Below, one piece after another: positions 45,335 to 60,425 of a stretch of 64,000 nucleotides of DNA. This DNA comes from Mycobacterium sp. HUMS_12744610 (GTDB lineage Bacteria; Actinomycetota; Actinomycetes; Mycobacteriales; Mycobacteriaceae). The stretch is from positions 62,001 through 126,000 of the forward strand of contig NZ_JBGEDP010000002.1 of NCBI RefSeq assembly GCF_041206865.1, written 5' to 3'. The position numbers and the translations under genes are program-made. Below the pieces are notes generated by a model. It was not told the DNA's origin and did not search any database. It was given only the letters and a program-made list of their open reading frames with translations. Within the stretch, counting starts at the first letter, position 1. Each line of letters begins with the position of its first letter.

Positions 45335-45562
45335 TCACGTCGCGTCGCGACGCATCTGCACAGCGTCCCCCGAAGTTTGGCCGCGTGATCGGGCCATGTA
45401 GGTGTCGAGGACGCGCTGCATCTCCAGGACTGCCGGCGCCGCAAGATCCAACCCGCAGGCCGCCAGCAGTTCCTGCCGCGCCGGTTCGTAACGTCGCTTC
45501 AACAGCGACGCCGCCCTGGCCGGGTCAACGTGCACCAGGTTTGTCGCAAGTCGGGAATCTAC
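45335..45562 (-). pseudogene. C-terminal half of an HD-phosphohydrolase gene cut by the integrated element
   Basis: Reads VDSRLATNLVHVDPARAASL then LKRRYEPARQELLAACGLDL to MRRDAT. DPARAxxLxxRYxPAR is typical of the C-terminus of small RelA/SpoT-type HD hydrolases. It has no start of its own; the N-terminal half lies at 60066-60425. Joining at the shared GGT gives one open frame of 195 codons. Confidence 0.8.
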
Positions 45563-45563
45563 C
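45561..45563. other. Left attachment junction of the integrative element
   Basis: On the minus strand, element DNA CGCAAGG-GGT meets host AGATTCCCGA. The GGT (ACC on plus) is shared with the right junction at 60064-60066. Exchange lies within these three bases. Confidence 0.75.
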
Positions 45564-45612
45564 CCTTGCGCTCGGGACAGGGGCCTGTACCCGAGGGTGT
45601 GGCGGCCAGGCG

Positions 45613-46287
45613 CTATAGCTTTGCCCTGTCGGGTGTCGGCGTGCGGGTGGTCGGGGTGGTGTCGAACAGGACTCGGAGGTCGGTTCCTTGGTAGGCGTTG
45701 CAGTCGACGGTGTGTCCGGCGATGTTTGCGCTGTTGGTGAATTGCCACGCGGCGGGGGTAACACCTCCGTAGGGTGCCCATCCTTCGCCGGTATTGCCGC
45801 CAGAGTCGGCGTAGATGGTTGAGGCGTAGCCGGAGCCGTCCGGGTACCCGGATGACACCAGGGCGTCGGCCAGGCCGGACAGGGTGCCGCGGCCCTGCTG
45901 CCGCCAGTACCACTGGGGGTAGTAGCCCAGCTGCACGATGATCCCGGCGGCGTTGAACGCGTCGACCACGGCGGTGAGATTAGCCAGGTCGCCGCCGTTG
46001 TCCTCCCAGTCCAGCATCGCGCGCGTTCCGCCGTTGTTGGCGTGCCAGGTTCGCACCTGCGAAGCGGGGTCGTCGGTCGTCACGTAGTGGTAACCGATGA
46101 CGGGCAGGTTATGCTGCTGGCACCATTGCCGCACCGGCGGCCAGTACGGGTCCTCGTAATAGTTGCCCTCGGACACTTTGTGGCACATCCCGCTAAAACC
46201 TTCTGGCACGAGCTGTTCCAGGAAACTAATCGCGTCCTGGACAGACGACCAGTTGTTGTTGCTGCAATCGGGGTAAAACAGCGTCAC
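45613..46287 (-). CDS. GH25-like lysozyme/lysin
   Basis: 224 residues from the GTG at 46287 (GTGA overlap). VTLFYPDCSNNNWSSVQDAI, HKVSEGNYYEDP and RTWHANNGGTRAMLDWEDNG follow the GH25-like pattern (D at strand 1, DWE acidic cluster), with GYYPQWYWRQQ and TPAAWQFTNS near the end. No signal peptide, as in mycobacteriophage lysins. It lies 50 bp inside the left junction of the element. Could cleave peptidoglycan during transfer. Confidence 0.75.
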   Translation of the reverse strand: MTLFYPDCSNNNWSSVQDAISFLEQLVPEGFSGMCHKVSEGNYYEDPYWPPVRQWCQQHNLPVIGYHYVTTDDPASQVRTWHANNGGTRAMLDWEDNGGDLANLTAVVDAFNAAGIIVQLGYYPQWYWRQQGRGTLSGLADALVSSGYPDGSGYASTIYADSGGNTGEGWAPYGGVTPAAWQFTNSANIAGHTVDCNAYQGTDLRVLFDTTPTTRTPTPDRAKL

Positions 46288-46457
46288 GGCCGGTGCCAAT
46301 GGCCGGTCTGGGCAAGATATTTGGTGATCCGCACCAGCCCATCACGGTCGCGGCGCACCTGCCAGCACAGCCCGTTATCGGTTTTGACCGCGGTGGCGAC
46401 CGCCCCGGCTTGGCGGCGAACTTCCCCGGCCCGCGTAGCATGACCATGTTTATTCAC
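46284..46457 (-). CDS. Small protein coupled to the lysin
   Basis: 57 residues from a GTG at 46457 (NKHGHATRAGEVRRQAGAVA, then NGLCWQVRRDRDGLVRITKY). The frame ends in TGA overlapping the lysin GTG. Composition changes from noise-like to clearly coding after residue 18, so the start is uncertain. Confidence 0.5.
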   Translation of the reverse strand: MNKHGHATRAGEVRRQAGAVATAVKTDNGLCWQVRRDRDGLVRITKYLAQTGHWHRP

Positions 46458-58211: not shown

Positions 58212-58384
58212 TGGCCACGACGCCCGCGGGCGGCGCCGCCAACAACCACGATGCCGGCGCGGTCCCGCTGCACGAGCGCCCGGAGTTCATAGCCTGGCTG
58301 ACCGCCTCATGTGAACGCCAGAACTTGGCGGTCACCGTCACCGACCCCACCACCCTGGCCGCCATCGCAACCCTCCTGCGCTAA
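58211..58384 (+). CDS. Small coupled protein after rep
   Basis: 57 residues (MATTPAGGAANNHDAGAVPL, then HERPEFIAWLTASCERQNLA and TVTDPTTLAAIATLLR). The ATG overlaps the rep stop (TGATG). The helical C-terminus fits a small regulator; AICEs often carry a short gene of this size after rep. Sequence not otherwise recognised. Confidence 0.6.
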   Translation: MATTPAGGAANNHDAGAVPLHERPEFIAWLTASCERQNLAVTVTDPTTLAAIATLLR

Positions 58385-58601
58385 GCACGCAATGGCACCG
58401 TACCGTCACCGGCCAACCGGATAGACGACGAAAGCCGTTTCAAAACAACCCTTCCCGGCGATAAGAGCATTCCTGACGTCTGGGCTGGCGGGCTGTCCAG
58501 GCTCGAAGCTGGCTTCGAGCGCGCGCGGCTTTGGCCTTGACCGCCCACCAACCCAGAGACACACTCGGCACTCGCCAGGGATCATCCACGACGCCGAAAA
58601 C

Positions 58602-60041
58602 CTAGATACGCCAACAGGGTTGCACGCGGTTAATGTCCAGACTGCGCGAACCCGGGGTGCCCGGTGCGATCACCGCGTGATCCAAGATCGATTTAACGAT
58701 GCTCCGCTGACGTTCCACGTCGAGGTCGGGCCACCCTTGGCGCAATGCCCCGCCGGTGCCCGCCAACTCATAAACCTCACTGGTATCGGTGGCCTCAGCG
58801 ATGTCACGCCTGGCCTGCTGGATGCGGCTGGTGATCGGGTCGCGGGCCGCGATCCACTCCCGCGCGCTGATCGCGCCGTCGGCATACAACCCGGCCAGCT
58901 CATCGAGGCGCGTTTGATCGGCCTCCACGGCCGCCGCCAACGCCGCCACATCATGATTAGGGCTGGCTTTGCCGGCCAACACCTTCGCCAGATCCCGAGA
59001 ATCCAGGCGGGTCAACACCGCATCAGTCAACAACGCCTCAACCGGTTCGGCGACCACCGTCAGCCGACCACAGCCGCCATGATCGGGTCCTTTCAGACAA
59101 ACATAGCGGCGCACCCGATGATCGGGATTACTGTGCCGGGCTTGCGAATACAGCCGATTACCGCAACGCCCACACCGCAGCATCCCCGACAACACATACG
59201 TGCGCGCCGCCCGCGTCTTGGTCACCGACCGCGCCGCGATACGCGCCAAGATCCGGTCCCGCTCCGCCGGGGTGATGATCGCCGGCCATTTCGCGGGGCC
59301 GATCACCTCACCACGATGCTCCCGCAGCCCGGCGATACGGCCCGAGCACAGGATCTGGCGCACCGCCGAGGTCTGCCACGACTTGGCCACCGCCGGGGAA
59401 ACGCCGGAGTCGTTGAGCCACACCGTCAACGACAACAACGACTGGCCCGCCAAGTAGCGGTCCACCATCTCACGCACCACCGCCGCCTCCGACGTCCGCA
59501 GCGTGATCTTGTCGTCCTCGTAGCCGAACGGACGCACCGAGCCGTGCGGTAGTCCCTGTTCGGCGTTCTGCAACATCTTGCGGCGAATACGTGCGGACTT
59601 GCGCCCGGACTCCTTGGCGGCGAACGCGGCGAAAATCCGGGCCATGAACAACCCGTCATCGTTACCCAGGTCAATATCGGCGGTCACGGTAGCCACGTCT
59701 CGCACACCCACCGACTCACACAAAGCGACAAACTCTTCCAACTCCACCGGTCGGCGATGCAACCGGTCCAAGTTGTAGACGATCACCGCATCCCGCGCCC
59801 CTGATGCCAGATCGGCCAGCATCCGCGCATACTGCCGACGCGGCTTGCCCGAGAACGCCGACACATCGTTATCCACATACTCATCGCCAACCGGCCAACC
59901 GCGGTCAGCAGACAGCTTGCGGCAATCCTCCAACTGCCGCGCCACCCCCAACCCGGTGCCCTCCACATCAGCCGAGATACGCGCGTAAATCGCCGCCGAC
60001 CGCACCCCAGCCCGCTGACCAGCGGATTTCATCTTCGCCAT
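58602..60041 (-). CDS. Large serine integrase (phiRv1-like)
   Basis: 479 residues. Catalytic Ser in AAIYARISADVEGTGLGVAR, then VIVYNLDRLHRRPVELEEFV and AAKESGRKSARI (Arg-rich). A recombinase domain (SVRPFGYEDDKITLRTSEAA), a zinc ribbon (GMLRCGRCGNRLYSQARH...CLKG) and a coiled-coil C-terminus follow, ending NRVQPCWRI. The organisation and end resemble the phiRv1 integrase of M. tuberculosis. Start codon lies 23 bp from the right junction, as usual for attP next to int. Confidence 0.93.
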   Translation of the reverse strand: MAKMKSAGQRAGVRSAAIYARISADVEGTGLGVARQLEDCRKLSADRGWPVGDEYVDNDVSAFSGKPRRQYARMLADLASGARDAVIVYNLDRLHRRPVELEEFVALCESVGVRDVATVTADIDLGNDDGLFMARIFAAFAAKESGRKSARIRRKMLQNAEQGLPHGSVRPFGYEDDKITLRTSEAAVVREMVDRYLAGQSLLSLTVWLNDSGVSPAVAKSWQTSAVRQILCSGRIAGLREHRGEVIGPAKWPAIITPAERDRILARIAARSVTKTRAARTYVLSGMLRCGRCGNRLYSQARHSNPDHRVRRYVCLKGPDHGGCGRLTVVAEPVEALLTDAVLTRLDSRDLAKVLAGKASPNHDVAALAAAVEADQTRLDELAGLYADGAISAREWIAARDPITSRIQQARRDIAEATDTSEVYELAGTGGALRQGWPDLDVERQRSIVKSILDHAVIAPGTPGSRSLDINRVQPCWRI

Positions 60042-60050
60042 GGGGGTATA

Positions 60051-60425
60051 TTAGCAGCATCTAACCTTGGGATTCGCGGTGATGTTCCATGCGTTGTCGA
60101 CCAGCTTGACGAACTGGCCGACAGAGTCGGCGCACGCTCGTTGGATCAGCTCCGAGTACGTCTCACCCGATCTGCGGGTGACCGATTCCACCCCAGCAAT
60201 AATGTGCGCGGGAATCCCTGCCCGGGCCAGATCCTCCGCCGTCGCCGCGGTGTCTTCGAGGACGTCATGCAGCCACGCAGCTGCGACCACGTTAGGTCCA
60301 AACACTTGCGCCGCCGAAGCGATCGGCACGAGGTGCCCCTCGAAGTACTCCCGGTCAGCTTTGTCTCGCTGCCCGGTATGTGCGCGCCGAGCGAATTCCC
60401 TTGCTGCGATCACATATTCGGACAT
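60051..60425 (-). pseudogene. N-terminal part of the interrupted HD-phosphohydrolase gene
   Basis: 124 codons in its present form. H and HD motifs (FARRAHTGQRDKADREYFEG, VAAAWLHDVLEDTAATAEDL) and VKLVDNAWNIT (third metal Asp) are intact, typical of (p)ppGpp-hydrolase-like small HD proteins. The last four residues (VRCC) are element-encoded. The missing C-terminus is at 45335-45562. Metal site is complete, so a truncated product might still fold. Confidence 0.85.
60064..60066. other. Right attachment junction of the integrative element
   Basis: On the minus strand, host AATCCCAA-GGT meets element TAGATGCTGC. The reconstructed attB is CCCAA-GGT-AGATTCCC and attP GCGCAAGG-GGT-TAGATGC. Confidence 0.75.

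What the first reader, a model, noticed from the sequence alone, without database searches (positions are those of the whole stretch)
45561..60066. A 14.5-kb integrative element splits an HD-hydrolase gene; attachment sites can be read
Seen: the N-terminal HD half (60066-60425) ends in KVRCC and stop, while a headless C-terminal half lies at 45335-45562. Both junctions share GGT on the minus strand. Joining at GGT gives ...ITANPK-VDSRLATNLVHVDP... with no stop, 195 codons in all. The right junction is 23 bp from the start codon of a phiRv1-like serine integrase. Known: large serine integrases recombine at short cores of a few bases near int. Inference: the element entered attB CCCAAGGTAGATTCCC.
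Basis: partly seen in the sequence, partly recalled or inferred. Interest (0 to 1): 0.88.

Follow-up and report, generated by a model that had tools for sequence, protein, structure and literature searches.

The report
Mobile element splitting a mycobacterial gene

Summary
The insertion is real. An AICE-type element (serine integrase, RepSA, FtsK/TraB-like protein, SCO3933-family regulator, cargo including a PE_PGRS gene) splits an HD_4-type hydrolase gene. Uninterrupted relatives, up to 97% identical to the N half, read NITANP-NLVQVDP and lack the VDSRLAT residues counted as host. Those residues are the element's own left att arm: a sister element inside an unrelated HNH gene of M. ahvazicum reads SRLATNL at the same place. 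Every aligned junction shares AA (window 60067-60068 and 45540-45541), giving 14,527 bp. The two arms form a dyad best centred on AA (14 of 24, next best 13, GGT 7). Of 43 distinct int-side flanks of sister elements, 40 have GG at -18/-17 and 41 have A at -12; the attP counterpart of GG lies 5 bp further out, as a published serine-integrase model expects. 29 of 43 flanks are HNH genes by pattern; the HD gene is an unusual target. Mycobacterial AICEs with serine recombinases were described in 2011: a new member of a known kind. My searches (open-licence papers only) showed no description of this site or pattern.

The parts
60069..60425 (-). N-terminal part of the interrupted HD_4-type hydrolase gene (the ORF 60051-60425 runs a few residues into the element)
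   Evidence: HD_4 26.5 bits, cut-off 27.2; 86-97% identical to P0001-P0009
60067..60068 (-). AA core at the int-side junction (attR)
   Evidence: DNA homology to sister loci ends at 60068-60071 in 23 of 29 loci, earlier (60055-60060) in 6; AA in 29 loci plus window (the pattern used required AAG)
60044..60066 (-). element-side (attP) arm next to int
   Evidence: 30 rows incl. window: TAA at +14..16 in 30 of 30; T, A and the middle C of TACCC at +19..23 in 30 of 30, the other two C at 97%
58602..60041 (-). large serine integrase, 479 aa
   Evidence: Resolvase, Recombinase and Zn_ribbon_recom above cut-off; phrog_95 integrase 333 bits
58208..58384 (+). small ORF (58 aa), role unknown; a directionality factor is a guess
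   Evidence: A 174-bp gene is annotated between the replication initiator and the recombinase in the M. avium pS2b copy, not aligned here; no PHROG match
56577..58211 (+). RepSA-type replication initiator
   Evidence: PF20199 422.8 bits, cut-off 34
55180..56580 (+). FtsK/SpoIIIE (TraB-like) DNA translocase
   Evidence: PF01580 56.5 bits, cut-off 24; TraB model 45.2 bits, far below its cut-off of 800
54618..55079 (+). SCO3933-family regulatory protein (start codon uncertain)
   Evidence: NF051478 80.6 bits, cut-off 80; match in 23 of the 29 closer sister loci
52904..54328 (-). XRE-type regulator (start codon uncertain)
   Evidence: HTH_31 and HTH_3; phrog_5823 206 bits; 87-91% identical in L034, L040, L041, L048, L049
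51760..52623 (-). glycine-rich ORF, cargo
   Evidence: ORF only; no NCBIfam match
50890..51582 (-). serine-protease-like protein, cargo
   Evidence: Rv1815_serprot 33.5 bits, below its cut-off of 175; no Pfam match
46869..48644 (-). PE_PGRS protein, cargo
   Evidence: PE 94.7 bits and PGRS 47.6 bits
45613..46299 (-). GH25/endolysin-like protein, cargo
   Evidence: Glyco_hydro_25 32.7 bits, cut-off 27; phrog_3084 endolysin 185 bits
   Evidence: Same arm at the far end of 7 sister elements, 1-4 mismatches to the search pattern
45540..45541 (-). AA core at the far junction (attL)
   Evidence: best of 219 candidate dyad centres
45335..45539 (-). C-terminal part of the interrupted HD gene
   Evidence: 93% identical to P0001 residues 119-174

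Best explanation
A mycobacterial AICE of 14,527 bp (45540-60066, one AA copy included) integrated by its own large serine integrase. Shown: attP arms on the element side of both junctions, an AA core, open Int, RepSA and FtsK-like reading frames, and uninterrupted relatives of the target gene. Inferred: the integrase recombined the AA of attP with the AA of the Asn codon that follows NITANP in relatives. RepSA and the FtsK-like protein would serve rolling-circle replication and double-stranded transfer of the excised circle, as in pSAM2-type AICEs (family knowledge). Because attP lies 27 bp before the int start codon and int runs the same way as the split gene, int is probably read from the host gene's promoter while integrated.
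For: Halves matched apart to the same relatives (relatives). Spacing 22 in 45 of 66 measurable relatives, none at 30. Homology to sister loci with other host flanks ends at 60068-60071 in 23 of 29. AAG stands 27-28 bp before int in 29 of 29 loci examined, of 48 found. Far ends of 7 sister elements show the same left arm, then AA, then host; in M. ahvazicum it too reads SRLATNL. Dyad: 14 of 26 arm positions match, 28 of 20,000 shuffles reach it; AA is best of 219 centres with 14 of 24 (next 13), GGT gives 7. RepSA in 14 of 14 genomes behind sister loci.
Against: Six of 29 sister loci lose homology 8-13 bp before the core. The int-side half-site in the HD gene meets only 1 of 3 positions of the pattern in sister insertions; the far side meets 3 of 3. 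No uninterrupted copy was obtained as DNA above 68% protein identity, so synonymous positions of the empty site are unseen. The AA dyad beats the next candidate by one position. No directionality factor was identified. Transfer was not tested.
Confidence: 0.92

Rival explanations
1. One reading: crossover at GGT, host attB CCCAAGGTAGATTCCC, and an uninterrupted gene of 195 codons.
For: GGT occurs at both junctions and the C-half piece is open from there.
Against: None of 66 measurable relatives has the spacing it needs; the same residues occur at the far end of a sister element in an unrelated gene; dyad score 7 against 14 of 24.
Confidence: 0.02
2. A defective prophage or phage satellite of the phiRv1 kind rather than a conjugative element.
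For: Serine integrase; an endolysin-like GH25 gene inside; phiRv1 also lies in 13E12 repeats (PMC9317374 passage).
Against: No capsid, portal or terminase match among the ten ORFs given to Pfam or the six given to PHROGs, which are not all ORFs of the element; RepSA with FtsK and a serine integrase is an AICE combination (PMC3218068 passages); all 1159 phage records with an integrase match are below 60% identity and the best-ranked is 37.3%.
Confidence: 0.05
3. Two events: a shorter AICE plus a separate insertion that brought the PE_PGRS/GH25/protease block (not exclusive with the best explanation).
For: Sister loci share mainly 52.5-60.07 kb with the window; no PE, GH25 or protease match at E<=1e-5 in the 48 integrase loci, 15 far stretches or L175, though 9 of the 15 far stretches did not show the far end.
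Against: The attP left arm lies at 45542-45565, outside the cargo, and no second arm was found in the window; variable cargo is normal for such elements (general knowledge).
Confidence: 0.2
4. A programmed interruption that is excised to restore the HD gene under some condition, like the skin or fdxN elements.
For: Serine recombinase beside the split gene; weak XisF match, 95.8 bits against a cut-off of 375.
Against: Sister elements sit in many different genes; the split HD gene was found in 1 of 396 genomes, the window's own.
Confidence: 0.04

Closest known systems
AICEs of Mycobacterium with serine recombinases (Ghinet et al. 2011, PMC3218068; passages seen)
   Same: Serine integrase, RepSA and FtsK/SpoIIIE in one element; the group of Mmar2129 and Mav3790 sits in protein-coding genes.
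   Different: Not compared with this element directly; HD gene target, AA core, host half-site pattern and PE_PGRS cargo are read here.
AICE core on M. avium subsp. hominissuis plasmid pS2b (NZ_CP076860.1)
   Same: 92.3% identical DNA from window 54740 to 60068, integrase 99.2% identical.
   Different: Different host flank and different neighbouring genes; its far end was not located.
phiRv1 prophage-like element of M. tuberculosis (recalled; REP13E12 location from a passage in PMC9317374)
   Same: Serine recombinase; 13E12 repeats resemble the target class of most sister elements.
   Different: PMC10654092 groups it with phage-satellite (PICI)-like elements (passage); the integrases were not aligned here.

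Membership tests
AICE | Integrase of the tyrosine or serine (PF07508) family | tested here: met
   Recombinase 43.7 bits, cut-off 21.1
AICE | RepSA, RepAM or Prim-Pol replication protein | tested here: met
   RepSA 422.8 bits, cut-off 34; the stricter NCBIfam RepSA model is below cut-off, 243 of 700
AICE | FtsK/SpoIIIE-domain Tra protein | tested here: met
   PF01580 56.5 bits, cut-off 24; NCBIfam TraB model 45.2 of 800, below cut-off
AICE | Site-specific integration with recognisable att sites | tested here: met
AICE | Excisionase/RDF gene | tested here: inconclusive
   Only an unassigned 58-aa ORF between rep and int
AICE | Excision, rolling-circle replication and conjugal transfer | not testable with these tools
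   Needs experiment
Large serine integrase with attP/attB of the known layout | Catalytic, recombinase and zinc-ribbon domains | tested here: met
Large serine integrase with attP/attB of the known layout | Zinc-domain motif 5 bp nearer the centre in attB than in attP (PMC3783163 passages) | tested here: inconclusive
   GG at -23/-22 in attP left arms (7 of 8 and 8 of 8) and GG at -18/-17 in 40 of 43 host flanks fit the shift, but that these bases are the zinc-domain motif is inference
phiRv1-like integrase | Target inside 13E12-type HNH genes | tested here: not met
   Not met in the window (HD gene); 29 of 43 sister flanks by an HNH pattern, L036, L037 and L215 more by eye. That these are 13E12/DUF222 genes is a recalled label, not tested with a profile in the sister loci
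phiRv1-like integrase | Sequence kinship with the phiRv1 integrase | not tested
   No alignment to it was made

The most novel reading that the evidence does not exclude
The natural insertions of this integrase clade spell out a short dyad target code (host GG at -18/-17 and A at -12, AA core, mirrored T and CC on the far side) that is read independently of the gene it lies in. 13E12-type genes would be favoured only because their HNH codons happen to spell it, and the element can spread into other genes such as this plasmid-type HD gene, taking over the host gene's promoter for its integrase each time.
Probability: 0.4. Interest if true: 0.55.

Novelty: new member of a known kind. Interest (0 to 1): 0.4.

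Why it matters
It corrects a plausible but wrong boundary read by eye and shows why it looked right: part of an attP arm stayed in frame with the host gene. PMC10654092 notes that serine-integrase attachment sites of M. abscessus prophages are not easily predicted because the common cores are short (passage). Comparing sister insertions (43 int-side flanks, 7 with both ends) gives a 2-bp core and a conserved host half-site, which makes sites of this clade predictable and testable.

Tried and rejected
Prophage reading: not supported. Uninterrupted HD gene of high identity as DNA: viral contigs gave at most 50% in the best segment among the 80 loci kept of 217; the N half in 198 genus genomes gave 21 others, the best 8 at 38-44% identity; P0001 in 396 genus genomes gave only the window's own two pieces at E<=1e-20; plasmids gave 65-68% in three M. 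intracellulare records. A first scan for far ends within 10 kb of int found no HNH continuation; with 15 further stretches the far end was found in 6 of those 15 and in L036 itself, and not in L034, L035, L041, L042, L050, L051, L054, L065, L066. In L039 and L044 two left arms 1,051 bp apart were found and I took the outer one.

Caveats. The half-site positions (GG, A) were picked after looking at the consensus of 30 rows, so the test is not blind. The HD site meets 4 of 6 positions; three uninterrupted HNH sites of the same genome meet 3, 5 and 4, so the HD site is unusual by gene class, not clearly by sequence score. Of the 8 far-side half-sites only the window and L039 are outside HNH genes. 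In one search one of the 43 flanks (a second arm in L053) may be a chance match; L049 and L051 were dropped for short flanks. Of 48 integrase loci, 29 closer ones were examined; the other 19, mostly more distant, were not. Residue spacing of 23 in 18 relatives partly reflects the anchor pattern (e.g. P0060).

Literature: one search gave one paper and one; of these I saw passages of PMC9317374 and PMC3218068. One search gave 24 papers, of which I saw passages of PMC3783163 and PMC10654092. One search gave none; some searches gave 3, 2 and 46 listings, of which only PMC3218068 and PMC10654092 were opened. The original phiRv1 papers were not seen.
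Full report
What is there. The window is part of a 250,868-bp contig of an unnamed 6.4-Mb genome; the genus Mycobacterium is judged from the PE_PGRS gene, ESX-like genes and named relatives. On the minus strand a 124-aa ORF (60051-60425) matches HD_4 just below cut-off and ends KVRCC. A remnant ending at 45335 matches the C-terminal part of the same gene in relatives. Searched apart, the N half aligns to residues 8-119 and the C half to 122-171 of the uninterrupted 177-aa protein of an M. 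intracellulare subsp. chimaera plasmid. The closest relatives, P0001 (175 aa, 97% to the N half) and P0002-P0009 (169 aa, 86-92%), are uninterrupted. P0001 as query found only the window's own two pieces among 396 genus genomes at E<=1e-20.

Where the joint is. P0001-P0009 read NITANP followed directly by NLV, NLA or NLM; P0010 reads NITSNSTL. Of 97 relatives found, 69 were put to a spacing count; 66 could be measured: 45 have 22 residues between the anchors, 18 have 23, 2 have 20, 1 has 21.

Sister elements. The integrase was used to find 48 loci in named genomes; 29 of them, 79-99% identical, were examined at the int-side end. DNA homology to the window ends at 60068-60071 in 23 of 29 and at 60055-60060 in 6, although the flanks there belong to different genes. 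In all 29, AAG stands 27-28 bp before the int start codon (the script looked for AAG in that neighbourhood). The far ends of seven, L030, L033, L036, L039, L043, L044 and L047, carry a left arm like that at window 45542-45565, then AA, then host. In M. ahvazicum (L030/L160) the target is an HNH gene, yet the arm also reads SRLATNL in frame, so these residues are element sequence. What arm and host share at every aligned junction is AA. In the window it lies at 60067-60068 and 45540-45541, giving 14,527 bp.

Symmetry. Read outward from AA, the two element arms match at 14 of 26 positions; 28 of 20,000 shuffles reach that.

The host half-site. Of 43 distinct int-side flanks (window left out), 40 have GG at -18/-17 and 41 have A at -12. 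29 are HNH genes by pattern and three more by eye, so much of this could be gene conservation. But seven flanks in other genes meet 19 of 21 positions, 0 of 20,000 random draws; for eight flanks with the window the score is 20 of 24 against a random mean of 7.4 (positions chosen after seeing the alignment). On the far side T at +12 is seen in 6 of 8, C at +17 in 8 of 8 and CC at +17/+18 in 4 of 8. The outer GG and CC of attP lie at 22-23, 5 bp further out. PMC3783163 describes a zinc-domain motif shifted 5 bp towards the centre in attB (passages); that these bases are that motif is inference. The HD site meets 1 of 3 on the int side and 3 of 3 on the far side.

The element. From the int end: serine integrase, small ORF, RepSA, FtsK/SpoIIIE protein, SCO3933-family protein, XRE regulator, then cargo: a glycine-rich ORF, a protease-like protein, PE_PGRS, and a GH25/endolysin-like protein. 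Serine integrase with RepSA and FtsK is among the AICE module combinations of Ghinet et al. (PMC3218068, passages), who report that all their Mycobacterium AICEs but one use serine recombinases and that one group sits in protein-coding genes. RepSA was found in 14 of 14 genomes behind sister loci (18 loci named, L037 not held). The core is 92.3% identical to that on M. avium plasmid pS2b. The PE, GH25 and protease proteins had no match at E<=1e-5 in the sister loci, and the glycine-rich ORF only a 19-25-residue stretch in three; many loci do not reach their far ends.

Target choice. The genome has 18 DUF222 matches, some of them fragments, among them three uninterrupted HNH sites with the Asn-Leu codons. 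The element nevertheless lies in the HD gene. Relatives of that gene occur on M. intracellulare plasmids, and parts of the contig resemble mycobacterial plasmids, so the element may sit on a plasmid; circularity was not shown.

How it probably works (inference). Integrase pairs attP and attB, cuts at AA, and rejoins. The attP lies directly before int, and int runs the same way as the split gene, so int is probably transcribed from the host gene while integrated. The HD fragment keeps the part with the HD motif but loses about 50 residues; whether it retains activity cannot be told. Transfer by RepSA and the FtsK-like protein is inferred from family knowledge.

Verdict. An ordinary kind of element, correctly noticed, with one boundary and the core misread. 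The corrected site and the pattern in the sister insertions are the useful result.

Noticed in passing
window 35838-39051: Array of 28 tRNA genes on the minus strand; the stretch around 35.8-39.6 kb is about 85% identical to M. intracellulare and Mycolicibacterium plasmids.
   Followed up: partly
window 1-6740: Type VII secretion-like region: about 74% identical pieces on a plasmid of Candidatus Mycobacterium methanotrophicum annotated eccA, eccB and PPE.
   Followed up: no
window 46869-48644: A PE_PGRS gene carried as cargo between the att arms of a mobile element.
   Followed up: partly
L163 about 15424 and 16475; reverse strand of L172 about 14240 and 15291: Two left-arm-like sites 1,051 bp apart in two sister elements, suggesting stacked insertions or a remnant.
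   Followed up: no
L175: The M. avium pS2b copy lies next to aminotransferase, AMP-binding and MMPL transporter genes; its far end was not located.
   Followed up: no
L195, L215 (genome G022) and L197, L214 (genome G195): Two genomes each hold two integrases 99% identical to the window's, in different HNH genes (L215 judged by eye).
   Followed up: no
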